Positions 1 to 15,086 of a DNA stretch of 29,069 bases are shown in pieces. Made by a program: the position numbers and the translations under genes. Source of the DNA: a virus; the IMG/VR virus record IMGVR_UViG_3300025769_009168, positions 1 to 29,069 of that record; one strand, written 5' to 3'. Under the pieces are notes generated by a model. It ran no database searches, was not told the DNA's origin, and saw only the letters and a program-made list of their open reading frames with translations. Position 1 is the stretch's first letter. Each line of letters starts with the position of its first letter.

Positions 1-433
1 CACGAAGCAAATGAGTCTTTGCAATCTTAGTAGGACAGAGATGAATATCAGTAATGCGAGAGAGCATCTGTCGGTATCCCTCTTCGGGGTATGGATGTTC
101 AAGATCGTAAGTTCGCAGTCCCGCTTCTAGATGAATTACGGGAATCTTATGATTAAAGGCAGTCAAACCAACTGCAAGGCAAGTAGCCGTATCACCCTGT
201 ACCAGAACGGCACTTACCCCATCAAAGTTCATACTGTTCATAACAGAAGAGAAAATTGAGTCCAGTCGATTGGTCCCCTCTGTAATTTTCAACTTATCGT
301 GATACCACCCACCAGAAATATCTGCATGTTGTCCAGTGAACAAGACTCGGAAGGGAATCTTACCCTCAAAGGCTTTGATCAGGGGTTTAATTTTTATCCA
401 CTCAGGACGAGTGCCATAACATAGTAAGATCAT
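1..433 (-). CDS. wecB: UDP-N-acetylglucosamine 2-epimerase (WecB-like), cut by left edge
   Basis: This gene runs off the left edge; 144 N-terminal residues of a family usually near 370 are visible. WecB-type non-hydrolysing enzymes interconvert UDP-GlcNAc and UDP-ManNAc in the cytoplasm. The N-terminus MILLCYGTRPEWIKIKPL matches the family's GTRPE-IK opening. The three catalytic acids known from the first half of bacterial WecB are recognisable: Asp in VQGDTAT, Glu in HLEAGLRT and Glu in HPYPEEGYRQ. The PTKIAKTHLLR segment matches the family's next block. The ATG overlaps the stop of the upstream SDR epimerase (ATGA), so the two are probably translationally coupled. It is the last visible gene of the sugar island. 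Family assignment is firm; product use is inferred. The missing C-terminal half, including the catalytic His, cannot be judged. Confidence 0.9.
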   Translation of the reverse strand, partial: MILLCYGTRPEWIKIKPLIKAFEGKIPFRVLFTGQHADISGGWYHDKLKITEGTNRLDSIFSSVMNSMNFDGVSAVLVQGDTATCLAVGLTAFNHKIPVIHLEAGLRTYDLEHPYPEEGYRQMLSRITDIHLCPTKIAKTHLLR

Positions 434-1386
434 TGATTTGTGAATAACCTATTATTATATGAAATAATTTCGTAAGCTTCTATTAGTTCTTTTATACCCA
501 CATGTAAATCAACAGATGGTTTCCATCCAAGAGATTCTATTTTATCATTACTCACGATATAATTTCTCTTATCTGGGTCGTTGTCAATTTCAGATTCTTG
601 AATAGAGAAGTTTGGAATGTATTTTTTTATAGTCTCACATAATTCCATCTTTGAAAGATTGGCACTACTGAGTCCTACGTTGAATGATTCGCCCTTCATT
701 TTATCATAATGTTCAATAGCAAAAATCATTGCACCAACTACGTCTTTGACATGAATGAAGTTTCTCTTGAAGGAACTTTCGAAAAGAACAATGTATTTAT
801 CTGTACACGCTTTGTATGTAAAGTCATTTACAAGTAAGTCGAGTCTCATTCGTTCGGAAATTCCAAACACCGTTGCAAGTCGAAGACAAACTGCACCTGA
901 TGTTTCCTTAAGATAGTTTTCTGCATTTACTTTAGTTGTACCGTAAAGACTTAAAGGGGCGAGTGGAGTTTCTTCGTTACAGTGAACAAGTTCTCCATCT
1001 TTCATTTCCCCGATCCCATAACCAGAATTGGTAGTTGGGAAAATAATTTTCTTATTATTACCAACAATATCCGCTATGTGTTTCACTGCGTCTTCATTAA
1101 CTTGAACCGCGGCTCTCTCGTCCTTCTTACAAGCAGGCATTCCTACGATACAAGCAAGAGGAATAATAATGTCATGTTCTTTAATGAGAGGATCAATTAA
1201 ATCATAATCTCTAACATCTCCTTTTACAAATTTAAACTTGGGATTGAAACAATGTGTAGTTAGTGTTGTTTGTCTATACATTAGATTATCAACTACTGTA
1301 ACATCATATCCCATATCCAATAATACTGGAACAAGAGTTGTTCCAATATATCCAGCACCACCCGTAATCAAAACACGATCATTCAT
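430..1386 (-). CDS. NAD-dependent nucleotide-sugar epimerase/dehydratase (extended SDR)
   Basis: A 318-residue extended short-chain dehydrogenase/reductase that probably acts on a nucleotide sugar with bound NAD. The N-terminal Rossmann glycine motif GGAGYIGTT (residues about 9-17) is intact. The catalytic set is visible as Thr/Ser in FPTTNSGYG (about 116-124) and Tyr/Lys in YGTTK (about 148-152). The C-terminal part has the usual substrate-side features (RNFIHVKDVV, FNVGLSS, LGWKPSVDL). Length is normal for UDP-glucose 4-epimerase-like enzymes. Substrate cannot be told from sequence; UDP-hexose 4-epimerases and related dehydratases are equally possible. It overlaps its neighbours at both ends by ATGA junctions and lies directly before the WecB-like gene, so a UDP-HexNAc pathway is a reasonable inference. 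Confidence 0.85.
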   Translation of the reverse strand: MNDRVLITGGAGYIGTTLVPVLLDMGYDVTVVDNLMYRQTTLTTHCFNPKFKFVKGDVRDYDLIDPLIKEHDIIIPLACIVGMPACKKDERAAVQVNEDAVKHIADIVGNNKKIIFPTTNSGYGIGEMKDGELVHCNEETPLAPLSLYGTTKVNAENYLKETSGAVCLRLATVFGISERMRLDLLVNDFTYKACTDKYIVLFESSFKRNFIHVKDVVGAMIFAIEHYDKMKGESFNVGLSSANLSKMELCETIKKYIPNFSIQESEIDNDPDKRNYIVSNDKIESLGWKPSVDLHVGIKELIEAYEIISYNNRLFTNQ

Positions 1387-1592
1387 TTATCACAAACCTT
1401 TCCATATGGAATTTTATTCCATATTCTTTCGTAAAAAAAGTAAACAAAAAAACCACTAACATTCATAAACACTGCGTTCCATATATGTTTGTCGGTCATA
1501 GCCAAATACAAAATTATAAAACTATTAAATGTAGCAAACAATCTCCACAATATAGTTTTTAGAATTGTTCGTAACTTAGTCTCTTTGTACAT
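1383..1592 (-). CDS. DUF2061-type small membrane protein
   Basis: A 69-residue protein with two hydrophobic helices (about residues 13-33 and 40-55) and a conserved-looking start and end: LKTILWRLFATFNSFIILYL and YERIWNKIPYGK. This matches the pattern of DUF2061 membrane proteins (K-T-W-R near the N-terminus, hER-WN-I at the C-terminus), which occur in bacteria and in marine T4-like phages, sometimes next to sugar- or sulfate-activation genes. Function is not established. I chose the ATG at 1592 because AGGA lies seven bases upstream; a TTG codon directly before it is in frame. The gene overlaps the heptose adenylyltransferase gene by 17 bases and the downstream epimerase by ATGA. As an inner-membrane protein in a glycan operon it could assist export or anchoring, but that is inference. 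Confidence 0.7.
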   Translation of the reverse strand: MYKETKLRTILKTILWRLFATFNSFIILYLAMTDKHIWNAVFMNVSGFFVYFFYERIWNKIPYGKVCDK

Positions 1593-1983
1593 CAAGTATT
1601 CCTGTTGTAGAGTAGTCTGCTATTCTATCAAAGAAAAGAATTTCTCCAGAGTACTCTTTCCCCACAATGGGGAGTTTCCTATAATCACCACCTATCACTC
1701 TATACACAGGACACATTTCTTTCAATAAAGAGATCAGTTCTTCGTTACTACCAAATGAAACTACCCCCTTTACATATTTGATCGAACGAACAAGTTCCAT
1801 CCTATCATCCAATGTATTTATTGGACGAGAATTACCTTTTAATTCTTTAATTCTCTCGTCTGTATCCAATCCCACTACGACTCTTCCGCCGAGACTACTT
1901 GCATACTTGAACATCTCAATATGACCTCGATGCAAGATATCAAAACAACCATTTAGCCAGATTGTTTGATATTTTTCAACCAT
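1576..1983 (-). CDS. hldE: D-glycero-beta-D-manno-heptose 1-phosphate adenylyltransferase (HldE C-terminal domain-like)
   Basis: A 135-residue cytidylyltransferase-fold protein equal in size to the second domain of bacterial HldE (RfaE), which transfers AMP to heptose 1-phosphate to give ADP-heptose. The nucleotide-binding motif is NGCFDILHRGH (residues 11-21, HxGH type). It is followed by VVVGLDTDERIKELKG, RPINTLDDRMELVRSI, VIGGDY and the C-terminal YSTTGI, all of which align by eye with the HldE adenylyltransferase domain. In most Gram-negative bacteria this domain is fused behind the kinase domain; here the kinase is a separate gene two positions upstream, with a cupin between them. It overlaps the cupin gene by eight bases. 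Glycerol-3-phosphate cytidylyltransferase (TagD) is a relative, but LKG, GGDY and STT favour the heptose enzyme. Confidence 0.87.
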   Translation of the reverse strand: MVEKYQTIWLNGCFDILHRGHIEMFKYASSLGGRVVVGLDTDERIKELKGNSRPINTLDDRMELVRSIKYVKGVVSFGSNEELISLLKEMCPVYRVIGGDYRKLPIVGKEYSGEILFFDRIADYSTTGILDVQRD

Positions 1984-2347
1984 ACTGACTGTCTCCTCGT
2001 TCTACCCTATAACTATCTTCGTCGAAGTGTGTAGTGGACACTTCAAAAATAACTGCATCACTGAGTGCTTCTACTTGGTGGGGTTCGCCTGGGCGATTTC
2101 GTACTACTTCACCTTCTCGAAGTACTTCAGTTCTCTTCGAAGCATCGGTAGTATCAATCCAGTTGAGTCGAATGGCTCCTTCTGCAAGATACCAAGTTTC
2201 ATCTTTTTTCATATGAAAGTGCATACTGAATCTTGCACCCTTATTGAATCGAAGTAATTTACCACAATACATTTCATTGTTTGCAAAGATAACTTCACTT
2301 CCCCAACCCTTTTGTACAATTTCTGATTGTTCTTTCTTAGTACTCAT
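1976..2347 (-). CDS. Cupin protein, type II mannose-6-phosphate isomerase-like
   Basis: A 123-residue single-domain cupin. The opening KGWGSEVIFANNEMYCGKLL and the metal-binding motif SMHFHMKKDETWYLAEG resemble the C-terminal cupin domain of type II phosphomannose isomerase/GMP enzymes. Likely metal ligands are His43, His45, Glu50 and His90. The C-terminus VSTTHFDEDSYRVERGDSQ is also typical. If it isomerises fructose 6-phosphate to mannose 6-phosphate it would feed GDP-mannose and so GDP-fucose, whose synthase is encoded upstream in the same island. Stand-alone cupins of this shape also serve as sugar-phosphate or nucleotide-sugar isomerases of unknown substrate. Position between the two heptose-activation genes is suggestive of a heptose-phosphate substrate, but nothing in the sequence proves it. 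Start codon ATG overlaps the previous stop. Confidence 0.75.
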   Translation of the reverse strand: MSTKKEQSEIVQKGWGSEVIFANNEMYCGKLLRFNKGARFSMHFHMKKDETWYLAEGAIRLNWIDTTDASKRTEVLREGEVVRNRPGEPHQVEALSDAVIFEVSTTHFDEDSYRVERGDSQYG

Positions 2348-3084
2348 AGGTAGTCTCCTATTACCTTTACGCCCTTTTGTTGGACTATTAGTGTTGCATA
2401 TTCGTTTGCAGTTTGTATTGATTTCTCAATGTCTTCCGTGTCAATATACGATGAAACTAATCCAGAAAGAAAGGTGTCACCGGCTCCAGTCATATCTTTT
2501 ACATCCACTGAATCTACCGAATAGTCCTTGTCCAGATATCTACACCCCTTATCACTAAGAGTCACAATAAGTTTCCTCTTAATCTCAGGAGTCACTGTTT
2601 CTACTGTCTTTTCATATTCAAATTGATTTATCTTTATGAAGTCAATTCCACAACACCACTTTCCTAGTTTCTTTTTTGTGTCTAGAAAAGTAGTTCCTGT
2701 TGCTCGGTTAGAAATATACTCAATGTCATCTTCTGTTAGAAATCCGTGGTCATAATCAGAGATAACGATAGCAGAATAATTTTCAAATGGAATTGATTCT
2801 ATGTTCTCTATCCTGTTGACCTTTCTTTCGTTTGAATCTACTCGTAGAAGTATATGATTAGTTCTGTGTTCTACAAATCTAGTCTTTGTAATATCTTCTG
2901 GATTAGTTATTATATCACATCTCTTCTTCAATGAAAGAATATTATCGTAAACATTTCTTGCCATTCCACCGTTGGTTTCTTCTTTCAATGTCATAAAGAC
3001 AGGAACAGGCGCTTCGGGAGCGAGTCTGTTGCAATATCCATAAAGATATTTGTCAATGCAAGAATCACCAATTACAAGTATCAC
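2344..3084 (-). CDS. hldE: D-glycero-beta-D-manno-heptose-7-phosphate kinase (HldE N-terminal domain-like, PfkB family)
   Basis: About 246 residues of the PfkB/ribokinase family. HldE kinase phosphorylates heptose 7-phosphate at C1. HldE-like marks are the N-terminal GDSCIDKYLYG, RLAPEAPVPV (the HldE RLSPEAPVPV block), GGMARNVYDN (nucleoside-family GGxxN block), ISDYDHGFLT and the PfkB catalytic/anion-hole signature DMTGAGDTFLSG near residue 200. It is shorter than the usual roughly 310-residue kinase domain of HldE, with compressed middle segments. I place the start at the GTG at 3084, which overlaps the upstream TGA (GTGA) and has GGGAGG seven bases before it. With the adenylyltransferase gene downstream it reconstitutes both HldE activities as separate proteins. 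Other PfkB sugar kinases are possible, but the EAPVPV block favours heptose. Confidence 0.85.
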   Translation of the reverse strand: MILVIGDSCIDKYLYGYCNRLAPEAPVPVFMTLKEETNGGMARNVYDNILSLKKRCDIITNPEDITKTRFVEHRTNHILLRVDSNERKVNRIENIESIPFENYSAIVISDYDHGFLTEDDIEYISNRATGTTFLDTKKKLGKWCCGIDFIKINQFEYEKTVETVTPEIKRKLIVTLSDKGCRYLDKDYSVDSVDVKDMTGAGDTFLSGLVSSYIDTEDIEKSIQTANEYATLIVQQKGVKVIGDYL

Positions 3085-3476
3085 CAACTGACCTCCCAGT
3101 CCTTAAAGTCACTACCAAGACAGTCTATCTTGTGGTCTTTTCTTCCACCAACGACTTCTTCAATTTTGTTCTTAGCAGTGTTGCGAATTCCATTCAATCC
3201 GTGAGTAAGTCTCAGGTCTGCTTCACCGTCACCTCCTCTGGCAGCAGATTCATTGTGCCAGATATGAAGATTCATTTGAGACAATACAACGATTGCTCTT
3301 ATGGTTTCTGCGGTGATTTCGGAATTCTGTAGGAGAATGTCGATGTCGTGAAGAATGTCGGCTATTTCTTCCGCATATTCTTCCTTATGGTCTACTATAA
3401 AAACCTCTTTCAGTTGATTAATACTGAGTCGGTCAATCAACTCACTGAGAGTCGGAAGATATTTTCTGTTGCTCAT
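3081..3476 (-). CDS. Hypothetical protein inside heptose/epimerase operon
   Basis: A 131-residue soluble, probably mostly helical protein that I do not recognise. Visible features are an N-terminal LPTLSELIDRLSINQLKEVF helix region, an acidic DILHDIDILL helix, a WHNESAARGGDGEA segment and a C-terminal LTHGLNGIRNTAKNKI helix followed by GGRKDHKIDCLGSDFKDWEV. No signal peptide or membrane segment. The ATG at 3476 is preferred over an upstream in-frame GTG (3491) because AAAGG precedes it with suitable spacing. The gene overlaps the epimerase upstream by 35 bases and ends in GTGA with the heptose kinase, so expression is almost certainly coupled to heptose activation. A role as a small accessory or regulatory subunit is conceivable, but there is no motif to support a specific function. 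Confidence 0.8.
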   Translation of the reverse strand: MSNRKYLPTLSELIDRLSINQLKEVFIVDHKEEYAEEIADILHDIDILLQNSEITAETIRAIVVLSQMNLHIWHNESAARGGDGEADLRLTHGLNGIRNTAKNKIEEVVGGRKDHKIDCLGSDFKDWEVSW

Positions 3477-4497
3477 TCTGTAACCTTTCACATATATTCT
3501 GGTAAACCCGTTTAAGACCTTCTTTGAATGAGGTTTCGGGATACCATCCTAGTTCATTATTTACTTTAGTCAAATCGCAGGACTGTCCTAAAATTGATGC
3601 CTTAATTTCTGGTTTGGTTTTGATGTCCATTCCCTTTTCGGAAACTTCAGCAATGAGTTCTGCAATTTGTCTCACTGTATATCTTACATCCGAACCAACA
3701 TTATAAGGACCAACAAACGATTCTGTCTTCATTTTATTTATCATCATCTTTGTTGCTTTTACTGCATCGTCAATATAACAATACGACCTAGTTTCAGTTC
3801 CATTTCCCCTAATCGAATATGGTTCTTCTGGATACTTGGCTGCTCGGTGACATAGTGCAGGAATTAGTGATGCATTTTCTAAATCCATATCTTGGTCTGG
3901 ACCATAGATTCCACAGTATCGGGCGACTGCAATATTAAACTTGCTTGTGTTGTCTTCGTCTTCTTCCTCTGCATACCAAGACAAGAGTTCCTCTGCATAC
4001 ATTTTTTCGGCACCATAAGAAAGAAACTGTCCCCCGAGTTTTGCATCACTTTCCTTTAGGGCGGGTGCATCTGGTCTTAGTTGCAGGTCGTGTGGATAAA
4101 CGTGCGTGGTGCTTGCGTAAAAAAGATTATTTACATTTGCAACACACAAAGAGAAAAGAACATTATTGTCAATTATTGAATTCTGAAACGCAACACTGAA
4201 CGGTTTGTTTTCATATAAACCAATACCACCAACTACGGCTGCAAGGTGTATTACCGTGTCTGCTCCCTGAAAACATTCAATAGTTTCTTCTATAGAAAGT
4301 AAATCTGCGTGGACTACAGACACATTATCTTTTATGTCTTCTATGTTCTTTTCTGAGCCTCTATTGCAGTTGTCAACCAGAAGGATTTCATCAAACTCAC
4401 CAGACTCCACATAACTTCTGGCAATATTTGAACCGATAAATCCAAGACCACCTGTAATTACTAGTTTGTTTCTTGTTGGTTCGCACATTTCAAACAT
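3442..4497 (-). CDS. GDP-mannose 3,5-epimerase-like SDR (catalytic Cys replaced)
   Basis: An extended SDR of about 351 residues. The Rossmann motif is GGLGFIGSN. SYGAEKMYAEELLSWY carries the Tyr-xxx-Lys pair and resembles the YGLEK...EEL block of GDP-mannose 3,5-epimerase (GME). Further GME-like blocks are LKESDA, RYCGIYGP, GNGTETRSYCYIDDAV, YNVGSD and LGWYPETSFKEGL. GME has a catalytic Cys in SSACIYP; here the aligned segment is STTHVYP, with His at that place, so the reaction may differ (for example 4-epimerisation or a different GDP- or ADP-sugar). The start at 4497 is chosen because GAAGG precedes that ATG and it overlaps the upstream TGA; another in-frame ATG lies 15 bases further up. 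The gene sits between an FkbM-like protein and the heptose genes. Confidence 0.75.
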   Translation of the reverse strand: MFEMCEPTRNKLVITGGLGFIGSNIARSYVESGEFDEILLVDNCNRGSEKNIEDIKDNVSVVHADLLSIEETIECFQGADTVIHLAAVVGGIGLYENKPFSVAFQNSIIDNNVLFSLCVANVNNLFYASTTHVYPHDLQLRPDAPALKESDAKLGGQFLSYGAEKMYAEELLSWYAEEEDEDNTSKFNIAVARYCGIYGPDQDMDLENASLIPALCHRAAKYPEEPYSIRGNGTETRSYCYIDDAVKATKMMINKMKTESFVGPYNVGSDVRYTVRQIAELIAEVSEKGMDIKTKPEIKASILGQSCDLTKVNNELGWYPETSFKEGLKRVYQNICERLQNEQQKISSDSQ

Positions 4498-5143
4498 TTT
4501 TAAAACCTTCATAACTAAACATTTTATCTATTCCTCGACCATCTGGACAATCCTCAATAAATTTAAATCCAGACTCTTTCATATAATCTAATATTTCTTC
4601 TTGTTTTGGTGCATCAATATATTCATTCCCTGTGCTTGATTCAATTTCTATCAATGGAAATTTGCTGTGGAAGTCCTTCGCATTTTTCATAATATTCAAA
4701 TCTTTGCCTTGTGTGTCTATTTTTAGGTACTCCACTTCTTTGAATTTCTTCCAATCTATTTTAGAGAGAATTGAAGAAAAAGGAAAAATATCTACAACTT
4801 CTTCTCTTAGTTTAGAATAAGGATGGTCAAGAGATATTTCAAATAAACTAGAACATCCAACATCGGTTGCAGTAATGTTCATTTTCATTTTCGTAGGAGT
4901 CTTTATATTATCTAATCCACAATTTAACATTACCAGTGTATTGTTATTCTTGTCTTTATGTTTTCTTAAGCAAGCCTCGCTCAATTCAAATGACAGTTTA
5001 ACTGGTTCTACTGCAATAATAAAAGTATCCTTGCAATCGTTTAACCACAAGGTAGTATTGGGAGGACAATGAGATAAACCAATATCAATTCTTAGTTTGC
5101 TTAACTCTGTTGTCGCCATTTTTTCTTCAAGTTCTTGCAACAC
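4490..5143 (-). CDS. FkbM-family methyltransferase-like protein
   Basis: A 217-residue protein with the layout of FkbM-type SAM-dependent methyltransferases, which methylate hydroxyls on sugars or polyketides. Visible are a short SAM-site-like start (RIDIGLSHCPPNTTLWL) with the following FIIAVEP strand (acidic residue for the SAM ribose), and the conserved late block EYLKIDTQGKDLNIMKNA, equivalent to the family's D-x-K-IDVEG-E. The glycine-rich loop is weak compared with the second FkbM protein at 7833-8519, so activity is less certain. Start: a GTG at 5143 has a strong AGGAG seven bases upstream and overlaps the previous gene by 17 bases; an ATG at 5119 is the alternative. It follows GDP-fucose synthase and could methylate a fucosyl or other glycan residue. 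Confidence 0.7.
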   Translation of the reverse strand: MLQELEEKMATTELSKLRIDIGLSHCPPNTTLWLNDCKDTFIIAVEPVKLSFELSEACLRKHKDKNNNTLVMLNCGLDNIKTPTKMKMNITATDVGCSSLFEISLDHPYSKLREEVVDIFPFSSILSKIDWKKFKEVEYLKIDTQGKDLNIMKNAKDFHSKFPLIEIESSTGNEYIDAPKQEEILDYMKESGFKFIEDCPDGRGIDKMFSYEGFKNV

Positions 5144-6062: not shown

Positions 6063-6976
6063 ACTACCAATTCTCCTTTTTTCATAACATCGAACATCTT
6101 ATTTATCTCAAAATTATACACTCTTTCATATGCACTTTCTACCATAGATTCGTAGTTCTCATAATTCTCTACTACATCTTTTAGTTTTTCCTGCAAGTCT
6201 GTAATATCATCCCAATAAACAAAATGTTTTCCTGGCTCAAACCAACGCTCAATAACATTCCAAGAATCTCGCTTTACTAAGTTCACCGTCTTTGCACACA
6301 TTGCCTCAATGACTCTTGGTTTGAACTGGGGAATGTATCCACTTTCAAGATTATTGAACGCTCCAATTTTATCCCAATTTTCATTTGCTATGATGTGGTT
6401 AATATGTTCAGTTCCTATTGGACACATATTAATTGCAACAGATGCTTTAGTCTGCGCCAGGACTTTCCATTTTTCTTGGCTGGTAACATTAAGCATAGTG
6501 GGTTCTCCAGCAGGCGACAAAGATGAAAAATTATACTTATACGGCTTCATTGACTCTACTATGTCGGCGTGTTCTTTACACATCATTGCTCCCATATAAA
6601 TCACATCTAATGTTTTATTGGTATCCAGTCCATTAAAACAAGAACCTTTGAATGGAAAGGGAATGGGAATGAATTTTGTGTTTGTTTGGTGCGAATTCAT
6701 AAACTCACAAGTATAAGGACACAAAGTATAAACGTGAGTGAAGTAACTCTGCTCCTGAAGACAAGTAGTGGTTGAAGCATAGGCACAGGGTGCTTCTAAG
6801 TTTAAATATATTCTTGTTGGTACTTCTTTATACTTTTCCCTAATATCTTCGTTCACTGATGTTCCGTACCCTTGGAAAAGAACACAATCATCTTTACCGT
6901 CATTATACTGTTCTAGTTCATAGTATGAATTGATTACATCCGCGTACTCTCCCCTTTTGTCGTGTGCTATAATCAT
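6059..6976 (-). CDS. GT-B glycosyltransferase-like protein (group 1_2 type)
   Basis: A 305-residue protein whose C-terminal third has the pattern of the Glyco_trans_1_2 domain of GT-B glycosyltransferases: FKPRVIEAMCAKTVNLVKRD, FEPGKHFVYWDDITDLQEKL and a final YERVYNFEINKMF. The Arg-x-x-Glu and the W/F-E-PG-HF blocks contribute to donor binding in that class. The N-terminal half is unusual, with many Tyr and Cys residues (EAPCAYASTTTCLQ, CPYTCEF), and shows no recognisable acceptor-domain motif. No signal peptide or membrane segment. It overlaps GDP-fucose synthase and the fucosyltransferase by ATGA junctions. Donor and acceptor are unknown. Confidence 0.7.
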   Translation of the reverse strand: MIIAHDKRGEYADVINSYYELEQYNDGKDDCVLFQGYGTSVNEDIREKYKEVPTRIYLNLEAPCAYASTTTCLQEQSYFTHVYTLCPYTCEFMNSHQTNTKFIPIPFPFKGSCFNGLDTNKTLDVIYMGAMMCKEHADIVESMKPYKYNFSSLSPAGEPTMLNVTSQEKWKVLAQTKASVAINMCPIGTEHINHIIANENWDKIGAFNNLESGYIPQFKPRVIEAMCAKTVNLVKRDSWNVIERWFEPGKHFVYWDDITDLQEKLKDVVENYENYESMVESAYERVYNFEINKMFDVMKKGELVV

Positions 6977-7836
6977 ACTAAAGTAAACTCCTCTGGATAA
7001 AACTCTGTTCTGTGTTCAATATTTACGCCTGGGTGGTAGTGCTTGGGTGCAATTACCTTCTTGTTCTTGTTCTGGTTTAGAAAGGCTGCCCACCACCCAA
7101 AGGAACTAATAGGAGACATTATGTTGTGGTCGCAATGCATAATCCTACAAAAATCGGAAAGTTCGTCTGATGAACTTGCAACAACGAAGTTGTCTTCTGA
7201 AAAGTTATTCTTGCACCATTCTATATCTTTGTTATTGTTTCCGTCTCTGGAACCTCCAGTAAACACTACAAACAAACAGTCTTCGCCCTTGAATTGTTCC
7301 AATGCTAGTTTAATGTAACCACCCATAAAACTGTTTGGGTCGAGTTTATCTGTGGTTCCGTATGAAGTTTGCTTTGCCACTTCACCGTCTGTGTTATCAC
7401 AGTTGTCGCCTCTGCGGAGATGCAAACTCACTATGGTTTTGTCTTTTGGTAGAGAATCTCTCCACTCTTTTGCCTTTTCCATATGAACTTGCTTCGGTGT
7501 TAGTTCTTTCTTAATCTCTTCTGTTCTGCTTCCAAAATACCAAACACTTTGGAAGTAACCAAAAACATCCACTCCGTCAGGAACAGAAAAGAAATGCTCA
7601 TCATATTCCCACGGGTTTGGTTCTTGGTATCTCATCTGTGGAAGGAAAGTAGAATCTAGTTTGGCAGATATATTAAATTCACCCAACAAACACTGCTGAT
7701 TATGATGTTCCCTATCTTTTGGATTAGGAATACAGAAATCATAACCATTATGTTTAGCAAGACTGTATAATGCCGCGTATTGGAAAAGTTGATTTCCCAA
7801 TCGACCTGCACTACCTAGTTGGGTAAAGGATATCAT
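6973..7836 (-). CDS. Alpha-1,2-fucosyltransferase (GT11)
   Basis: A 287-residue glycosyltransferase of family GT11, transferring fucose from GDP-L-fucose to a galactose-like acceptor by an alpha-1,2 link. The three family motifs are clear: GRLGNQLFQYA at the N-terminus, SLHLRRGDN in the middle (the HxRRGD donor-binding motif shared by GT11/GT23-type enzymes) and MSPISSFGWWAAFLN near the C-terminus. Length equals that of bacterial enzymes such as WbsJ or FutC-type proteins. Cytoplasmic, no signal peptide. Co-location with GDP-L-fucose synthase gives donor supply and transferase in one operon. The acceptor is not deducible; O-antigen-type polysaccharide or a virion glycoprotein are possible. 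Confidence 0.93.
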   Translation of the reverse strand: MISFTQLGSAGRLGNQLFQYAALYSLAKHNGYDFCIPNPKDREHHNQQCLLGEFNISAKLDSTFLPQMRYQEPNPWEYDEHFFSVPDGVDVFGYFQSVWYFGSRTEEIKKELTPKQVHMEKAKEWRDSLPKDKTIVSLHLRRGDNCDNTDGEVAKQTSYGTTDKLDPNSFMGGYIKLALEQFKGEDCLFVVFTGGSRDGNNNKDIEWCKNNFSEDNFVVASSSDELSDFCRIMHCDHNIMSPISSFGWWAAFLNQNKNKKVIAPKHYHPGVNIEHRTEFYPEEFTLV

Positions 7837-8519
7837 TTTGCAAAAACCATTCCGTAGTTTACTCTTCGTTCTTCATCGATTAGTTTTTCCATCTCCAGTT
7901 CTTCCCACGAATAGTAGTTCTCAGGGAAGGTTAGATATGAATCACCTCGGGGGTCAAATGTAGCCTTATCGAATACATCTCCTTCGTCGAACCACCCACA
8001 CACTCCGAACTGAGTGTAACCTAATTTTCGAAGATGTTCAATACAACCATACAGCACATTTGACATTTCTTCGTGCCATTCAAAGAATAATTCAGGAGTC
8101 TTTTGAGTCAATCCCTTAATGACATTCAACTCCCCTCCTTCAACATCAATCTTGATATAATCAGGAACACCATACTCTTCTATGAGTTGGTCAAGTGTAG
8201 TACTTTGAATTGCAGAATCAAGTGACCAATAAACCGACTTGGGTCGTAGATTTTTACTTCCCATAGTAAATCTAGATATTTCCATAAATTCCTGTGATGT
8301 AGTAGAAACACCATTGTCGAACGGAGCCGTATAAAAGGAAACTTCACCTATTTCAGAAGATACCGCTTTCTTTACTAATGTAAAATTTTCTTTATCACTA
8401 TGAATAGAATCGAGTGCAGGATTTGGTTCTACTGCTACTATTATAGTATCGTTACCAAATTTATCAAACGATGCGGTAGTAAATTCACCTTTGTTATAAC
8501 CGATGTCGAATATTTTCAT
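7833..8519 (-). CDS. FkbM-family SAM-dependent methyltransferase
   Basis: A 228-residue FkbM methyltransferase. SAM-binding motif I is FDIGYNKGEFT (residues 4-14), followed by IIVAVEPNP (acidic residue for the ribose). The family block TTLDQLIEEYGVPDYIKIDVEGGELNVIKG lies at about residues 107-136 and is an almost textbook match. The C-terminus (FFEWHEE, FGVCGWFDEGD) is less conserved. These enzymes O-methylate sugars in glycans, lipooligosaccharides and nodulation factors; methylated fucose is a common product in bacterial surface glycans, but the substrate here is unknown. Both ends overlap neighbours by four bases. Confidence 0.9.
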   Translation of the reverse strand: MKIFDIGYNKGEFTTASFDKFGNDTIIVAVEPNPALDSIHSDKENFTLVKKAVSSEIGEVSFYTAPFDNGVSTTSQEFMEISRFTMGSKNLRPKSVYWSLDSAIQSTTLDQLIEEYGVPDYIKIDVEGGELNVIKGLTQKTPELFFEWHEEMSNVLYGCIEHLRKLGYTQFGVCGWFDEGDVFDKATFDPRGDSYLTFPENYYSWEELEMEKLIDEERRVNYGMVFAK

Positions 8520-9118
8520 TTGTTTTTAAATACCGTAAACTCTCGCAAGTCTCGGTAACCTCCTTCTTCAATAAGATCTGGTACGTTCTCTGGATAGTTT
8601 TGCATGAGTGCTAGACCATGCGCCGCCTGTTGTGGAGTCATATACATGTTCCATCCGAGCATTGTAATATCATCTTCCTTATATGGTACTGCGTGTCGTC
8701 CTTCGTATCGTGCAACACGAAGCCAGTCTACAATATATTTGTTGTCAGTTAGAATCATTCCACCCTTACCAATTGCGAGGTGTTTTTTGACATGAAACGA
8801 TAGACACATGTTTGTGCCTTCGATATACATGTTAGAAGTGAATCGTTTGGCAGAATCATAAATCGGATATGGTTTGAGTTGGTAAACACCACACCATTTT
8901 TCATCGCTAAACTTTACTGTGCCACCAGAATGAATAATAGACTGAGGTACTGAGAGATAAGTCTTTGCAGGTATTTCAACTTCCTTAACATTAAAAAATT
9001 TACAACAAAGAAAAAGAGCATCGGTACAAGACGTAACAGCAACAGCATAAGGCGCACCAGTGTAATCAGCAACTGTTTCCTCAAACATTTCTACAATTTT
9101 AAAAGGGTTATGTTTCAT
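8516..9118 (-). CDS. Shortened DegT/DnrJ/EryC1/StrS-type aminotransferase
   Basis: About 200 residues, roughly half the 370 usual for PLP sugar aminotransferases, yet it keeps the key parts: FEETVADYTGAPYAVAVTSCTDALFLCC (start of the large domain and phosphate-binding Thr region), EIPAKTYLSVPQSII, IYDSAKRF (Asp pairing with the pyridine nitrogen), LSFHVKKHLAIGKGGMILTD (Schiff-base Lys) and YMTPQQAAHGLALMQ. The segment between the second strand and the Asp is compressed, and the C-terminal small domain is missing. There is no frameshift, and the stop overlaps the next ATG, so this is a compact gene rather than an obvious pseudogene. The ATG at 9118 overlaps the GNAT stop; a TTG 15 bases upstream is possible. 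With the adjacent acetyltransferase it could make an N-acetylamino sugar. Confidence 0.72.
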   Translation of the reverse strand: MKHNPFKIVEMFEETVADYTGAPYAVAVTSCTDALFLCCKFFNVKEVEIPAKTYLSVPQSIIHSGGTVKFSDEKWCGVYQLKPYPIYDSAKRFTSNMYIEGTNMCLSFHVKKHLAIGKGGMILTDNKYIVDWLRVARYEGRHAVPYKEDDITMLGWNMYMTPQQAAHGLALMQNYPENVPDLIEEGGYRDLREFTVFKNK

Positions 9119-9498
9119 TTTTCCATTAACCAATACTTAATTTTAAATCCACAACTTTCAAATAGTTTTCTACTTGCTTCGTTTTCAATTTTCACTTTAG
9201 CAAAAGAATCTGGGAATCTTTCCATCAGTTCTGCTATTAGAACTTTTCCTACACCTTTACCCTGATAATCAGGATGTACACACACGCGAATGTCATTATC
9301 TAAAGACCCTGCAAACCCAGCAGGTTCATCATTGTACAAGGCGACAATGTATTTGGAACGATGCTTCCGCATGTATTTATCCTGTTGATTTTTGGTTATG
9401 TTCACGACTTCTATGAATCCATCTTGGACTCTTGGATCACTACGAAGTAGTCGTATGAAATCATAATACTTAGGATCATTGTTAACTATTTTTATCAT
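9115..9498 (-). CDS. GNAT-family N-acetyltransferase
   Basis: A 127-residue GNAT protein transferring an acyl group from acetyl-CoA to an amine. Motif A for CoA pyrophosphate binding is VCVHPDYQGKGVGKVLI (Q-x-x-G-x-G/A), and the C-terminal motif B region is KIENEASRKLFESCGFK. The N-terminal half (YYDFIRLLRSDPRVQDGFIE) is the usual acceptor-binding region and gives no specificity clue. The ATG at 9498 (TGATG junction with the upstream gene, GAGG seven bases before) is preferred to an ATG six bases upstream. It directly precedes the sugar aminotransferase gene, a pairing common in pathways for N-acetylated amino sugars; that role is inferred. Confidence 0.85.
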   Translation of the reverse strand: MIKIVNNDPKYYDFIRLLRSDPRVQDGFIEVVNITKNQQDKYMRKHRSKYIVALYNDEPAGFAGSLDNDIRVCVHPDYQGKGVGKVLIAELMERFPDSFAKVKIENEASRKLFESCGFKIKYWLMEK

Positions 9499-10274
9499 CA
9501 CCATGCCTCATTTCTCACAAGATAACTGGACATGTCCCACATACCTCTCTGCTTGACTCCAGCCCAAGCAGACAAATATCCCCTATCAATTCCCAATCCA
9601 AGATCGGGATTTAGGGCAGAACCCAAGTCAAGATATGTGTTGTTTGGTGCAATTTCATGAAGTTTATGAATACAAATATTTCCAAGACTACTCGCACAAA
9701 ACAAAAACAATTTACCTTCTGGTTTAGTCTCTCGGGTATATTGAACTATCTCTTCTATCTTATCATCATCGTTTATAATGCAGTTTGATCCGACTCTAAA
9801 ATCTTTTATCACATTCTTGAATTTATCTAACTTAGAATTTTCATTACACATGATAACGATTTCATACTCGTCAAATGTAGGTAAAACCTTTTCACGAAAA
9901 TTATAATAGTTAGAGTTAATAAACAAATTGGCAAAAGTTATATTTTCAATGTCAGAAGCACTATTATCAATCATCCAGTCCCGTGGACTATACCCAACGA
10001 TTCCCGCATCAGAATTTGTAGTTATGCCAATGTGATAGGTTTTAGACTTGTATCTAAAAGCATCCCACAGTTTATCATGATGAAATTTATGTGTTTCAGA
10101 ATTGAACTCTTTCTGATCTTCTGGATTCAAATAACCATGAGAAGTAGGACTTAGAGAATAAGATTTATTCTCAAGAATCCAAAGTTCACCATCTGCCCAT
10201 CTACTAAATGCGAAAGGTTCATGTAGTTGTAACTTTGTTAGATACTTATAAAATTCTTGTTTAAAATCTTTCAT
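9498..10274 (-). CDS. Putative GT-D-fold glycosyltransferase-like protein
   Basis: A 258-residue protein. The segment FAFSRWADGELWIL (about residues 21-34) resembles the R-x-G/A-DGE motif that marks the GT-D (DUF1792) glycosyltransferases. The C-terminal part (KLFLFCASSLGNICIHKLHE, TYLDLGSALNPDLGL) fits the second half of that fold, where a Rossmann-like strand ends in a D-x-G-S loop. Length is close to the family's 260-270 residues. No signal peptide or membrane helix. Its place between a GT-A glycosyltransferase and an acetyltransferase in a sugar operon supports a glycosyltransferase role. Resemblance is from short motifs only, so another carbohydrate-related function is possible. Confidence 0.55.
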   Translation of the reverse strand: MKDFKQEFYKYLTKLQLHEPFAFSRWADGELWILENKSYSLSPTSHGYLNPEDQKEFNSETHKFHHDKLWDAFRYKSKTYHIGITTNSDAGIVGYSPRDWMIDNSASDIENITFANLFINSNYYNFREKVLPTFDEYEIVIMCNENSKLDKFKNVIKDFRVGSNCIINDDDKIEEIVQYTRETKPEGKLFLFCASSLGNICIHKLHEIAPNNTYLDLGSALNPDLGLGIDRGYLSAWAGVKQRGMWDMSSYLVRNEAW

Positions 10275-11029
10275 TCTGCTTCCAACATTTTGAAACCATC
10301 ATCAACAGCCCTAGCAAGACAAATACCCATCAACTGACCCGCTCTAAATGGTTTTCCATTTGGACCTTGAAAAGTAGTCATTGAGATTCCTTCTTCACTG
10401 TGACCATATTCAGAACCTTTCGTACTACCCCACATAGAAAGATCATCCTTTGGGTGAGGAGGAACATAGGTTGCAAAGTCCGTATACTTCTGAATCATAT
10501 GAGAGAAATGAATGTCTTCACCGACAATTGGCGGAATATCAACATGAGGCAGTTCTCTCCACAGAACACTTAGAAGTTCTCTTGGAAAGAACCAAGAGTG
10601 ACCAACAATGTCTACCTTTGTAGTTTCTTCGTTTGGATCACACCATCCAACCCGTCTAAGTTTTTGCCACGAGTAATGTTTGTCACCAAACAGAACACCG
10701 ACAGTTCCAAGAAGACCGGGAGTCTTCTCCATAGTGTCTAGGCAATTTTGCAACCAGTTTTCACCGGGAATAGTGTCGTCATCTAGGACGCAAATATAAT
10801 CAGCCTTTGAGTTAAGAGCGTAAGCAAATCTAGACCAGACTCCAAGATTGTAATTGCAATCTGCAAAGATCAGTTGTTTCTTTATTTCTTCTGGAACTTC
10901 TTGTTCACTATTGTTTCGCCAAGCATAGATTCCAGACACATCAACACTCTGATTGTTTACGGCTTCTATCTGTTCGGGCAACCAACGTGTTCTTCTATAA
11001 CAATTTAAAAATACATCAACCGTTGCCAT
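10271..11029 (-). CDS. GT-A family glycosyltransferase with DDD motif
   Basis: A 252-residue protein with a GT-A outline: an N-terminal VDVFLNCYRRTRWLPEQIEA strand-helix, an NLGVWSRFAYAL segment and the metal/nucleotide-sugar-binding ICVLDDDTIPG (about residues 79-89), where the DDD acts as DXD. Later residues include FFPRELL and DIHFSHMIQKYTD, the latter giving an ED-type catalytic region (VGEDIHFSH), as in GT2/GT64-like enzymes. It overlaps the GT32 gene by 14 bases and the following gene by ATGA. Substrate unknown. Family could be GT2 or a GT64-related group; the DDD motif and Asn-Leu-Gly-Val block make the glycosyltransferase call fairly safe. Confidence 0.75.
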   Translation of the reverse strand: MATVDVFLNCYRRTRWLPEQIEAVNNQSVDVSGIYAWRNNSEQEVPEEIKKQLIFADCNYNLGVWSRFAYALNSKADYICVLDDDTIPGENWLQNCLDTMEKTPGLLGTVGVLFGDKHYSWQKLRRVGWCDPNEETTKVDIVGHSWFFPRELLSVLWRELPHVDIPPIVGEDIHFSHMIQKYTDFATYVPPHPKDDLSMWGSTKGSEYGHSEEGISMTTFQGPNGKPFRAGQLMGICLARAVDDGFKMLEAE

Positions 11030-11666
11030 ATGTCATTCCCATTTTACCTTGCACAGTCTCGGTACTACCCCAATACTGTTCGGAATAGATCTTATCATTA
11101 CCCTTATATTCTACACCAGTGTAATGCTTTGGCAAGAAGTAATGCGAAGGATAAATTTTGATCTTATCGTAACCAGTTTTCTTGGTCATCTCTGTGAGGA
11201 ATTTGGGACCAACAACTTGCCATGCAGTTAGGTTTGGTAACTTGGAAAGTTCTTCTGGATTCATCTCACGGATTCTCCAAACCATATCATCCAACAACTT
11301 GTTGTTTTGTGAACATGCAAGGTATCCATTGCACATTAATCCCTCGCGGACCTCTTCGTTTTCCCAACAACAGAATGCTTCATTCTCTACGAAGAAATCA
11401 TCGAGTGAATTTACACAGACAGAATCAGCATCAATGAAAAACCCACCGTAGTTATAAAGCAGTTCATACCGAAGTATGTCTGCCTTACCGGCGAGTTCAT
11501 TCATAGCATCAAACTGTGCTTGATTACGCAGAGGAGGCATATTCTCCTCAGACCAAAATCGATAGTCCCATGTTGGGTTCTTTTCTTTCCAAGTCTCCAT
11601 CATTTCGACGGGACGTTTGGATTGATCACCCACCCATATCTGGTGGATAATTTTTGGAATGCTCAT
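11016..11666 (-). CDS. GT32-like glycosyltransferase (OCH1/DXD sugar-binding type)
   Basis: A 216-residue glycosyltransferase opening the sugar island. IPKIIHQIWVGD at the N-terminus and YRFWSEENMP match the Gly_transf_sug (GT32) family, and the core KADILRYELLYNYGGFFIDADSVCV contains the family's R-Y-x-x-L-x-x-x-GG-x-Y/F-x-D-x-D motif (DXD = DAD). The C-terminus ends with HHxx-like region SHYFLPKHYTGV, also usual. Bacterial GT32 proteins of this size add hexoses to capsules or lipopolysaccharide. A good AAGGA lies before the ATG. Only 24 bases separate it from regA, without a visible promoter, so it is probably read through from the regA transcript. Confidence 0.85.
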   Translation of the reverse strand: MSIPKIIHQIWVGDQSKRPVEMMETWKEKNPTWDYRFWSEENMPPLRNQAQFDAMNELAGKADILRYELLYNYGGFFIDADSVCVNSLDDFFVENEAFCCWENEEVREGLMCNGYLACSQNNKLLDDMVWRIREMNPEELSKLPNLTAWQVVGPKFLTEMTKKTGYDKIKIYPSHYFLPKHYTGVEYKGNDKIYSEQYWGSTETVQGKMGMTYGNG

Positions 11667-11690
11667 TATATAAATCCTTCACTAGTTGCA

Positions 11691-12098
11691 TCATTTACGT
11701 TTACCGATATGATATTTAGGTATCAGTTCCCACTCACTTTTCTCACGATGAGAAATTATCTTAATGTGATTGATTGGAACCTTGTCTTCGGCTTTGGTAG
11801 GGTCTACAATTTCTAATAGACCCCATTCTTCCAACAGACTTGCAATCATATTTCTTCTTGAAACATCACTCTCGGAAAGATTACTTGGTAGACCATCAAG
11901 AGCAAACAACTCTTTAAAGTGTACGATGTAATACTTTCCCTTCTTGTGTAAAATATGGCAAGACTGCCATAATTTATTTTCTGTTCTAGACGATACGCCT
12001 ATTCTTGTTAAGGTTTCTCTCACTTTGAGAAAGTCATCCTTTTCACTGAGCGTAACTTCTAACAAATCTTCTACGCCTATATCAATATATTCTTCCAT
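11691..12098 (-). CDS. regA: RegA translational repressor
   Basis: A 135-residue homologue of T4 RegA (122 residues), an RNA-binding protein that represses translation of early phage mRNAs by covering their start regions. The match is clear throughout: DDFLKVRETLTRIGV, SCHILHKKGKYYIVHFKELF, LDGLPSNLSESDVSRRN, LLEEWGLLEIV and the C-terminal SEWELIPKYHIGKRK. It has about 13 extra residues at the N-terminus compared with T4. A sigma70-like promoter lies just upstream, and AGGTG precedes the ATG. In T4 relatives regA is followed by other replication genes; here the sugar island follows directly. Confidence 0.95.
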   Translation of the reverse strand: MEEYIDIGVEDLLEVTLSEKDDFLKVRETLTRIGVSSRTENKLWQSCHILHKKGKYYIVHFKELFALDGLPSNLSESDVSRRNMIASLLEEWGLLEIVDPTKAEDKVPINHIKIISHREKSEWELIPKYHIGKRK

Positions 12099-12127: not shown

Positions 12128-12156
12128 GTTATATTTAGGATTTTACTCGTTTTCAA
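12128..12156 (-). promoter_or_regulatory. Sigma70-like promoter for regA
   Basis: On the minus strand TTGAAA (12151-12156) and TATAAC (12128-12133) are separated by exactly 17 bases, five of six matches each to the consensus. The gp62 stop codon TGA lies inside the -35 box. The predicted start is about 12120, giving a short leader with a ribosome site before regA. It would allow regA and the sugar island to be expressed apart from the clamp-loader genes. Confidence 0.7.
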
Positions 12157-15084: not shown

Positions 15085-15086
15085 GT

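What the first reader, a model, noticed from the sequence alone, without database searches (positions are those of the whole stretch)
1..11666. An 18-gene phage carbohydrate island inserted directly after regA
Eighteen co-directional genes, nearly all with ATGA-type or longer overlaps, encode nucleotide-sugar synthesis (fucose, heptose, two or three epimerases), five glycosyltransferase-like proteins of different fold classes, two FkbM methyltransferases, an acetyltransferase and an aminotransferase. Core T4 genes flank it on one side without any promoter or terminator in the 24-base joint with regA. This is far more than the single glucosyltransferases known from T4. It looks like a complete glycan-building system, whether for virion glycosylation, host envelope remodelling (superinfection exclusion or serotype change) or DNA modification.
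Basis: partly seen in the sequence, partly recalled or inferred. Interest (0 to 1): 0.82.

Follow-up and report, generated by a model that had tools for sequence, protein, structure and literature searches.

The report
Phage sugar operon beside fibre genes
An uncultured T4-like phage carries a large, swappable set of sugar-building genes in a spot that, in its close relatives, runs into an enzyme resembling protein glycosyltransferases and then tail-fibre genes, which suggests that such phages may coat their own fibres with sugars rather than (or as well as) repainting the host.

Summary
18 co-directional, overlapping ORFs (2-11666, minus strand) follow regA after 24 bases; the record ends inside the last. 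Two relatives from other metagenomes (G001, G023) have the same joint, so it is no chimera. The regA-gp43 gap is 0.08-5.9 kb in 13 named T4-like phages, 14-21 kb in seven sugar-bearing relatives holding both genes.

The genes make and transfer sugars: five glycosyltransferases, epimerase/dehydratases, heptose-type kinase and nucleotidyltransferase, aminotransferase, acetyltransferase, two FkbM methyltransferases. The middle is swappable: G001 has a formyltransferase in place of the acetyltransferase.

'Complete glycan-building system' is not supported: no multi-pass exporter, polymerase or initiating transferase was found. In 18 of 18 sugar-bearing loci long enough to tell, a glycosyltransferase-TPR protein, closest among solved structures to GmaR (flagellin O-GlcNAc transferase), is followed at once by a fibre-associated gene; in 6 of 18 a collagen-like or very large gene comes next. 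In 16 relatives without seen sugar genes the fibre-associated gene directly follows regA, without that transferase.

Best reading, inferred: cytosolic O-glycosylation of the phage's own fibre or baseplate protein. Related clusters are known in cyanophages, elsewhere in the genome, and read as host-LPS genes.

The parts
2..433 (-). orf01, UDP-GlcNAc 2-epimerase (WecB-like), N-terminal part, cut by the record end
   Evidence: Pfam PF02350 1.5e-25; NCBIfam wecB 1.6e-30, below cut-off; full-length 326 aa relative in G001
430..1386 (-). orf02, NAD-dependent epimerase/dehydratase, substrate unknown; identical protein in G001
   Evidence: PF01370 3.7e-32; dN 0, dS 0.04 against G001
1383..1595 (-). 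orf03, small DUF2061 predicted membrane protein
   Evidence: PF09834 9e-7; one KD segment
1576..1983 (-). orf04, HldE C-domain-like nucleotidyltransferase
   Evidence: PHROG 7878 3.2e-40; rfaE_dom_II 102 bits, cut-off 181.5; 44-49% to P-SSM2 and P-TIM68
1976..2347 (-). orf05, cupin of the cyanophage T4-GC 307 kind
   Evidence: PF07883 6.6e-9; PHROG 7851 1e-39; 45-49% to P-SSM2, S-SM2, P-TIM68
2344..3087 (-). orf06, HldE N-domain-like PfkB sugar kinase
   Evidence: PF00294 2.1e-16; PHROG 8133 2.6e-76; relatives in 32 of 50,697 named records
3081..3491 (-). orf07, conserved protein of unknown family
   Evidence: no Pfam, PHROG or NCBIfam hit; 74-78% relatives just before the kinase gene in G001, G022, G023, G025
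3442..4512 (-). orf08, NAD-dependent epimerase/dehydratase, substrate unknown
   Evidence: PF01370 5.4e-37
4490..5143 (-). orf09, FkbM methyltransferase
   Evidence: PF05050 5.6e-11
5127..6062 (-). orf10, GDP-L-fucose-synthase-like
   Evidence: NCBIfam Fcl 7e-90, 302 bits, below the 500-bit cut-off
6059..6976 (-). orf11, glycosyltransferase (Glyco_trans_1_2; GT-B by family, recalled)
   Evidence: PF13524 3.5e-9
6973..7836 (-). orf12, GT11 (fucosyltransferase-type)
   Evidence: PF01531 7.3e-22; PHROG 2644 4e-49
7833..8519 (-). orf13, FkbM methyltransferase
   Evidence: PF05050 8e-16
8516..9133 (-). orf14, compact (205 aa) DegT sugar aminotransferase, perosamine-synthase-like core
   Evidence: PF01041 4.5e-24; model pLDDT 92.3; Foldseek 3dr7 3.9e-11, TMq 0.66
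9115..9504 (-). orf15, GNAT acetyltransferase; a formyltransferase-domain protein stands in its place in G001
   Evidence: PF00583 8e-15; PF02911 6e-10 in G001
9498..10274 (-). orf16, GT-D fold glycosyltransferase
   Evidence: family R..DGE invariant; PF22882 in 20 of 37 members at E<=0.1; model pLDDT 93.3; Foldseek only 4phr/4pfx at E<=1e-3
10271..11029 (-). orf17, GT2 glycosyltransferase
   Evidence: PF00535 2.1e-6
11016..11666 (-). orf18, DXD glycosyltransferase (Gly_transf_sug, GT32-like), first gene after regA
   Evidence: PF04488 3.4e-10
11667..11690 (-). 24-base joint between regA and the island
   Evidence: same spacing in G001 and G023
11691..12098 (-). regA
   Evidence: PF01818 1.6e-43
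12153..12530 (-). gp62 clamp loader, core flank
   Evidence: PHROG 225 4e-38
14146..15090 (-). gp44 clamp loader, core flank (used for the tree)
   Evidence: PHROG 168 1e-126

Best explanation
The island is the variable, sugar-making half of a phage-encoded protein O-glycosylation locus that lies between regA and gp43. The window's genes make unusual activated sugars (an N-acylated amino sugar from aminotransferase plus acetyltransferase, a fucose-type and a heptose-type sugar), O-methylate them and link them with soluble glycosyltransferases. Just beyond the window's end, as seen in its relatives, lies a GmaR-like glycosyltransferase-TPR protein that would bind the acceptor through its TPR and attach the glycan in the cytoplasm to a virion protein: the neighbouring fibre-associated protein (PHROG 1084 family, 'p1084', with a Gly/Ser/Thr-rich loop) and/or Thr-rich collagen-like tail fibres. 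Exchange of the middle genes changes the glycan and so the virion surface. Shown: gene content, joint, cassette exchange, gene order in relatives, similarity to GmaR/SunS, no multi-pass membrane protein seen. Inferred: enzyme substrates, the acceptor, that the window's phage also has the glycosyltransferase-TPR and fibre genes, and the benefit (masking, adsorption, stability).
For: (1) Glycosyltransferase-TPR in 18 of 18 sugar-bearing loci long enough to tell, each followed within 140 bp by p1084 (two of the 18, L092 and L093, are near-copies). In G025 the sugar genes lie upstream of gp55 but glycosyltransferase-TPR, p1084 and collagen-like genes follow regA: it stays with the fibre genes. (2) In 16 other regA loci p1084 follows regA directly, and neither sugar genes nor glycosyltransferase-TPR are seen in the 0.6-10 kb held (three of them read through to gp43). 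(3) Its profile has 13 PDB hits at 1e-3: GmaR 1.9e-16, SunS 2.8e-10 and 4.5e-10, one more GT2-like protein 2.4e-9, and nine TPR or designed repeat proteins within residues 177-300: the architecture described for GmaR (GT 6-103, TPR 165-350; PMC3150276, passages). (4) Both nearest relatives, G001 and G023, have collagen-like genes next, tail fibre by PHROGs in G001. (5) p1084 holds 17-22 Gly/Ser/Thr in its richest 30 aa with the transferase (16 sequences) against 9-16 without (12 sequences). (6) No multi-pass membrane protein in 344 ORFs. (7) Acetyl- to formyltransferase exchange beside the same aminotransferase.
Against: The window does not contain the glycosyltransferase-TPR or the fibre genes. 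Only 6 of 18 loci have a collagen-like or very large gene right after p1084; in 12 of 18 short genes follow (one of them, in G002, was scanned as a dUTPase). In one further sugar-bearing locus (L022) the glycosyltransferase-TPR is split into two ORFs, broken or misassembled. In the sugar-less loci only one of four large ORFs tested matches a virion structural family well (8.5e-16) and one weakly a short tail fibre (6e-5), and p1084 there matches PHROG 1084 only at 3.5e-4 in the one tested. The sugar/no-sugar label needs only 2 changes on the gp44 tree, so points 1, 2 and 5 are few independent events; point 5 was looked for after seeing the sequences. The quartet orf17-14 occurs in other viruses mostly without a glycosyltransferase-TPR nearby (3 of 52 dereplicated loci have it). 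Published readings of similar clusters favour host-surface change.
Confidence: 0.52

Rival explanations
1. Host-envelope remodelling: the phage alters the host's LPS or capsule during infection and so excludes other phages.
For: HldE-type, cupin and kinase genes are shared with cyanophage 'LPS' clusters; published readings (PMC3037559, PMC2984593, PMC7029224, PMC7824862, passages); GT11, WecB and fucose-synthase families are typical of O-antigen loci (family knowledge).
Against: No flippase, polymerase, exporter or multi-pass initiating transferase in 344 ORFs, so it would have to feed host carriers; the constant partner is a GmaR/SunS-like glycosyltransferase next to fibre-associated genes.
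Confidence: 0.28
2. Both: one activated-sugar pool used for the fibre glycan and for host-surface decoration.
For: More sugar enzymes and more GTs than one short glycan seems to need (inference); the 17-16-15-14 quartet is also found without the glycosyltransferase-TPR nearby.
Against: No direct evidence for either target.
Confidence: 0.12
3. DNA modification: the glycosyltransferases decorate hypermodified phage DNA.
For: T4 and other phages do so (general knowledge); the locus lies among replication genes.
Against: No thymidylate-synthase-fold protein (the family that would include a dCMP hydroxymethylase) in 12 of 12 records, up to 150 kb, though the records are fragments.
Confidence: 0.05
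4. Passenger or stuffer DNA for headful packaging, without function.
For: Raised as a possibility for cyanophage LPS clusters in PMC3037559 (passage).
Against: dN/dS well under 1 against G001, dense overlaps, gene order kept at the distal end across the clade.
Confidence: 0.03

Closest known systems
Cyanophage 'LPS' clusters (P-SSM2, S-SM2, S-SSM7, P-TIM68)
   Same: T4-like core; orf04, orf05, orf06 correspond to T4-GC 304, 307 and 305 at 42-50% identity
   Different: Those clusters lie elsewhere (P-SSM2: about 194 and 239 kb, regA at 142 kb); the regA-gp43 gap is 1.3-5.9 kb in P-SSM2, S-SM2, P-TIM68 and in P-SSM2 holds hsp20, purine and carbamoyltransferase genes. The GT-D-like orf16 has no match in 50,697 named records at E 1e-5
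Pelagimyophage host recognition cluster
   Same: T4-like phages with glycosyltransferases beside tail-fibre genes (PMC7029224, passages)
   Different: Located between VrlC and gp14 in the structural module; HTVC008M has about 0.27 kb between regA and gp43
GmaR and SunS
   Same: Best solved relatives of the glycosyltransferase-TPR gene; GT2 followed by TPR as in GmaR
   Different: GmaR also has a C-terminal anti-repressor domain and modifies flagellin, SunS a bacteriocin (recalled); the phage proteins are 398-449 aa and lie before fibre-associated genes
Mimivirus autonomous glycosylation
   Same: Virus-encoded sugar aminotransferase plus N-acetyltransferase in a glycogene cluster, O-methylated amino sugar, glycosylated collagen-like proteins (PMC4691112, passages)
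   Different: Eukaryotic giant virus, unrelated host; there glycans and enzymes were measured
Mycobacteriophage virion glycosylation
   Same: Glycans on capsid and tail tube subunits (cited in PMC12619734, passage)
   Different: Few glycosyltransferases and no sugar-making operon of this size (recalled)

Membership tests
Cyanophage LPS-type sugar cluster | T4-GC 304, 305, 307 genes present | tested here: met
   42-50% identity to P-SSM2, S-SM2, P-TIM68 proteins
Cyanophage LPS-type sugar cluster | located near hli03 or phoH (as in PMC3037559) | tested here: not met
   located after regA; relatives show it between regA and gp43
Cyanophage LPS-type sugar cluster | phage infects cyanobacteria | tested here: inconclusive
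   no Photo_RC (psbA-type) gene in 12 of 12 related records, fragments up to 150 kb; host unknown
O-antigen/capsule biosynthesis locus | Wzx/Wzy or ABC exporter and membrane initiating transferase | tested here: not met
   0 of 344 ORFs with two or more TM segments, some intervals incomplete, single-pass enzymes not excluded (control; no known flippase was run as a positive control)
O-antigen/capsule biosynthesis locus | variable middle between conserved flanks | tested here: met
   window against G001
GmaR/SunS-type protein glycosyltransferase (gene beside the sugar block in relatives) | GT2 domain followed by TPR | tested here: met
   PF00535 5e-15 and a weak TPR_2 match below its cut-off; GmaR and TPR hits of the family profile
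GmaR/SunS-type protein glycosyltransferase (gene beside the sugar block in relatives) | transfers sugar to a protein | not testable with these tools
   needs an assay
GmaR/SunS-type protein glycosyltransferase (gene beside the sugar block in relatives) | present in the window's own phage | not testable with these tools
   record ends inside orf01; present right after orf01 in G001 and G023
Phage DNA glucosylation | pyrimidine hydroxymethylase of the thymidylate synthase fold | tested here: not met
   PF00303 in 0 of 12 records, records incomplete
DegT/DnrJ/EryC1 sugar aminotransferase (orf14) | PLP core fold and conserved Lys and Asp (motif roles recalled) | tested here: met
   D93, K116 and K117 invariant in 44 sequences; Foldseek 3dr7
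DegT/DnrJ/EryC1 sugar aminotransferase (orf14) | full length with C-terminal domain | tested here: not met
   205 aa; the 50 PDB matches listed are 357-442 residues long, TMt 0.32-0.41

The most novel reading that the evidence does not exclude
A clade of uncultured T4-like phages has turned the regA-gp43 interval into a self-glycosylation locus: a GmaR-like cytosolic O-glycosyltransferase fixed beside the fibre genes, fed by an exchangeable sugar cassette that swaps glycan 'serotypes' of the phage's own tail fibre. This would be a prokaryotic-virus counterpart of mimivirus autonomous fibre glycosylation, and would reassign some 'LPS' clusters of phages from host remodelling to virion decoration.
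Probability: 0.42. Interest if true: 0.8.

Novelty: new variant of a known kind. Interest (0 to 1): 0.64.

Why it matters
What the large sugar clusters of T4-like phages do is open: the passages read here treat them as host-surface genes or even stuffer DNA. If the target is the phage's own fibre, the glycan becomes part of the adsorption machinery and of the virion surface, and cassette exchange would be a way to vary that surface without touching the fibre gene. The claim can be tested with two or three cloned genes. It also adds soluble candidate protein glycosyltransferases and a half-size sugar aminotransferase as possible tools.

Tried and rejected
DNA modification: tested by family PF00303 in 12 records, 0 hits, set aside as unlikely, not excluded. 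Host from psbA: 0 of 12, so no support for a cyanobacterial host; host left unknown. Near DNA relatives among named phages: 18 records, only short matches in core genes (window 1-25000). A truncated, broken aminotransferase: rejected, because the short form is a conserved family (101 IMG/VR stretches encode a relative, best 80 kept; mean column identity 64% in 44 sequences) with dN/dS 0.10. Link of the 17-16-15-14 quartet to fibres in other viruses: looked for and not found (glycosyltransferase-TPR in 3 of 52, p1084 in 1 of 52, collagen-like in 1 of 52 dereplicated loci within the DNA held). Enrichment of GXT collagen repeats with islands: 6 of 19 records of the island clade (2 of the 19, G013 and G014, without sugar genes), 0 of 6 short-gap records, 2 of 5 named phages; backward-pattern control 0 of 30: too few and too fragmentary to use as a statistic. 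A first HMM pass let the orf15 profile pick up orf14 ORFs through a fused protein; those counts were replaced. In one search p1084 was missed in 4 of 18 sugar loci because of ORF tiling; one search replaces it. Loci not in the 18: other sugar-bearing regA loci end before the distal end; three of them (L007, L008, L022) reach the glycosyltransferase-TPR but not p1084. PDB searches with orf12, orf16 and orf17 alone gave nothing useful; orf18 matched distant DXD glycosyltransferases only and was not followed. Literature searches that returned nothing on point. Novelty statements rest on searches in an open-licence library only.

Full report
WHAT IS THERE. The window is a whole IMG/VR record of 29,069 bases, linear. 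All main genes lie on the minus strand. In the direction of transcription the order is gp22, gp23, a tail-tube-like gene, uvsY, uvsW, gp55, gp47, gp46, exonuclease-like, gp45, gp44, two small ORFs, a PHROG 19197 gene, gp62, regA, with unassigned ORFs between, then, after 24 bases, 18 ORFs down to the end of the record. The last (orf01) is cut. Every one of the 17 island joints overlaps by 4 to 50 bp. Simple promoter and terminator scans are at chance level.

THE GENES. From regA: orf18 DXD glycosyltransferase, orf17 GT2, orf16 GT-D, orf15 GNAT, orf14 compact DegT aminotransferase, orf13 FkbM methyltransferase, orf12 GT11, orf11 Glyco_trans_1_2, orf10 GDP-fucose-synthase-like, orf09 FkbM, orf08 epimerase/dehydratase, orf07 unknown, orf06 HldE-type kinase, orf05 cupin, orf04 HldE-type nucleotidyltransferase, orf03 DUF2061, orf02 epimerase/dehydratase, orf01 WecB-like. 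Substrate names are by similarity: the NCBIfam equivalog cut-offs were not reached for the heptose or fucose models. orf16 alone has no Pfam hit at 0.01; its family keeps R25, D28, G29, E30, 20 of 37 members match the Pfam GT-D-like model and 2 of 37 GT-D itself (best 7e-9), and the predicted structure (pLDDT 93.3) has only two PDB matches at E 1e-3 or better, both the DUF1792 GT-D enzyme.

IT IS REAL AND SELECTED. The nearest relatives are G001 (contig 3300001460_000016, 77 kb) and G023 (3300017706_000970, 89 kb). Both have regA followed by orf18 at the same spacing. G001 aligns at 88.95% over 12.6 kb across the joint. Nei-Gojobori dN/dS against G001 is 0.04-0.19 for orf01, 04, 06 (saturated dS), 14, 16, 17, 18 and 0 for orf02; orf03 and orf07 gave no estimate.

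SWAPPED MIDDLE. Between window and G001 the first three genes (orf18-16) and the end (window 1-2050, 94.1%) are shared, orf14 is shared at 89%, window 2366-3477 at 67%, and blastn finds nothing for the rest of the island. Where the window has the GNAT orf15, G001 has a protein with a formyltransferase C-terminal domain, next to the same aminotransferase; then a methyltransferase, a GT1-type glycosyltransferase, a protein without a Pfam hit, a C-methyltransferase and an epimerase. An acetyl-for-formyl exchange on an amino sugar is the simplest reading (inference). orf02 and orf03 have dS 0.04 and 0 while regA to gp45 have 0.26-0.65: that block was probably exchanged recently. G023 keeps orf15 and most of the island at 54-99% but lacks orf13 and orf09 in place; an FkbM-profile match lies between its orf18 and orf17 instead.

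A HOT SPOT. In 13 named T4-like phages regA and gp43 are 0.08 to 5.9 kb apart: T4, S-CRM01, Syn1, S-RIM32, P-SSM2, S-SM2, DSL-LC03, P-TIM68, HTVC008M, DLP6, S-SCSM1, S-SRM01, C48C1; the two longest gaps hold purine, hsp20, carbamoyltransferase and small genes (P-SSM2) and an N-acetyltransferase, a sulfotransferase and small genes (DLP6). Of the 80 IMG/VR regA loci, 22 have gp43 within 0.3-4.3 kb. From loci without a near gp43 I chose 22 records: 10 of them hold both genes in order on one contig, 14.4-21.0 kb apart in seven with sugar genes (G002, G005, G006, G008, G010, G011, G019) and 6.5-15.2 kb in three without (G013, G014, G015). Of 24 Epimerase-family matches in 12 chosen records, 16 lie inside the interval, which makes up 21% of the bases (binomial P 2e-6, matches taken as independent; without the window and the record found through an island gene 10 of 18, P 0.001); FkbM 7 of 7 (4 of 4). 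Seven of the eight outside matches lie within 7 kb of it; the eighth, in G003, is at the other end of a contig whose gp43 part is there too.

WHAT LIES AT THE OTHER END. In 18 of 18 sugar-bearing loci long enough to tell there is a 398-449 aa glycosyltransferase-TPR protein (PHROG 13126 in the three tested) and within 140 bp a 131-154 aa protein of PHROG 1084, also similar to PHROG 3304 'L-shaped tail fiber protein assembly' in three of the four tested. Then come collagen-like proteins in G001, G019, G023, G024, G025 and a 1,412-aa protein with a few collagen-like triplets in G016 (6 of 18). PHROGs calls them tail fibre in G001 and G019; the 1,412-aa protein has no PHROG hit and those of G023-G025 were not scanned. 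In the other 12 of 18 short genes follow. In G025 the sugar genes lie upstream of gp55, yet glycosyltransferase-TPR, p1084 and collagen-like genes directly follow regA. In 16 other regA loci (several near-copies) p1084 lies directly after regA, and no sugar gene or glycosyltransferase-TPR is seen in the 0.6-10 kb held; in three of these the whole stretch to gp43 was read and holds large ORFs, of which four were scanned: one matches a virion structural family (8.5e-16), one weakly a short tail fibre (6e-5), two nothing with a named function. The 22 short-gap loci have neither gene. The remaining loci end too soon to classify.

WHAT THE GLYCOSYLTRANSFERASE-TPR IS LIKE. A profile of 17 of them has 13 PDB hits at 1e-3: GmaR (1.9e-16), SunS (2.8e-10 and 4.5e-10), a GT2-like protein (2.4e-9) and nine TPR or designed repeat proteins within residues 177-300. 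GmaR is described with a GT domain at 6-103 and TPR at 165-350, and a 2006 paper titled it a bifunctional O-GlcNAc transferase (PMC3150276, passages and reference list). FlmG is another TPR-bearing cytoplasmic flagellin O-glycosyltransferase, with a GT-B domain (PMC7591256, abstract part and passages). Among named phages 10 of 50,697 have a match, 5 over at least 80% of the length.

A POSSIBLE ACCEPTOR. p1084 proteins that go with the glycosyltransferase-TPR carry a Gly/Ser/Thr-rich loop: 17-22 of 30 residues in the richest window (16 distinct sequences) against 9-16 (12 distinct) without it (Mann-Whitney on G+S+T fraction P 1.4e-5). I looked for this after reading the sequences, and the groups are related: on a gp44 tree of 50 rows the sugar label needs 2 changes. 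G019, which has sugar genes, transferase and loop, groups with the sugar-less phages (weak, 81/70), a possible independent case.

NO EXPORT MACHINERY SEEN. 0 of 344 ORFs in 18 regA-gp43 intervals (15 with sugars, several cut by contig ends) have two or more hydrophobic segments; the same scan finds such ORFs in L207 and L211, 2 of 7 control loci. So no Wzx, Wzy, ABC permease or multi-pass initiating transferase was seen; single-pass ones are not excluded. A glycan made by soluble enzymes can go to a cytoplasmic acceptor or to a host carrier. PF00303 is absent in 12 of 12 partial records, against T4-style DNA glucosylation.

THE QUARTET. orf17-16-15-14 recur in this order in other viral contigs: of 52 dereplicated orf14 loci, 20 have all three upstream, 32 have orf16, 27 orf15, 27 orf17, 18 orf01 (7 loci are short of upstream DNA). 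One with all four is a 362-kb contig (L190); contigs of 274-291 kb have orf15 and orf14 only. Each adjacent pair is found fused somewhere: 17-16 and 15-14 in L198, 16-15 in L202. orf14 is a 205-aa form of the DegT family: model pLDDT 92.3, best match GDP-perosamine synthase (E 3.9e-11, TMq 0.66, TMt 0.38). Relatives are in 7 of 50,697 named phage records, and the one genome scan gave 4 MAG contigs. Near the quartet in other viruses the glycosyltransferase-TPR is rare, so the quartet is not by itself a fibre system.

MECHANISM, AND HOW SURE. Best supported: cytosolic O-glycosylation of a fibre or fibre-adaptor protein, with the window's genes as the variable sugar supply and chain-building part (0.52). 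Host-envelope change is the main rival (0.28) and the reading given in the passages I saw for cyanophage and pelagimyophage clusters. Mimivirus shows that a virus can do the fibre version, with aminotransferase, N-acetyltransferase and collagen glycosylation (PMC4691112, passages).

NOVELTY. Large sugar clusters in T4-like phages are known, and three genes here are members of the published cyanophage set. New here, as far as my searches of an open-licence library go (listed under Tried and rejected), are the regA-gp43 location, its linkage to a GmaR-like transferase and fibre-associated genes, the acyl-transferase exchange, and the conserved quartet with a half-size aminotransferase.

Noticed in passing
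window 8516-9133; L129-L206: Half-size (about 205 aa) DegT sugar aminotransferase family lacking the C-terminal domain, conserved (mean column identity 64% in 44 sequences), in at least 80 IMG/VR loci including contigs of 274-362 kb.
   Followed up: partly
L198:6103-8651, L202:6811-8001: Fusions of neighbouring quartet members (GT2 with GT-D, GNAT with aminotransferase, GT-D with GNAT) in single ORFs.
   Followed up: partly
window 430-1595 against G001: orf02 and orf03 are nearly identical in DNA to G001 (dS 0.04 and 0) while regA to gp45 have dS 0.26-0.65: probably a recent exchange of this block.
   Followed up: no
G004 (L014/L099): Two different regA matches (72% and 62%) on one 32-kb record, and a second gp45-like match in L099: two replication modules or a joined contig.
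   Followed up: no
L022:9641-10849: The glycosyltransferase-TPR of this sugar-bearing locus is split into two adjoining ORFs (184 and 217 aa): frameshift, decay or assembly error.
   Followed up: no
L057, L049 (G019, G016): Epimerase genes also sit between gp45 and gp44, and in L049 between gp62 and regA, so sugar genes enter the replication cluster at more than one joint.
   Followed up: no
L107:10719-11063 and L110:5269-5607: Proteins annotated 'phosphoheptose isomerase' in P-SSM2 and P-TIM68 begin with DxDGT-type motifs that look like a HAD phosphatase (motif recalled; sequences).
   Followed up: no
window 3081-3491: orf07 has no family in Pfam, PHROGs or NCBIfam, yet keeps its place before the kinase gene at 74-78% identity in four relatives.
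   Followed up: no
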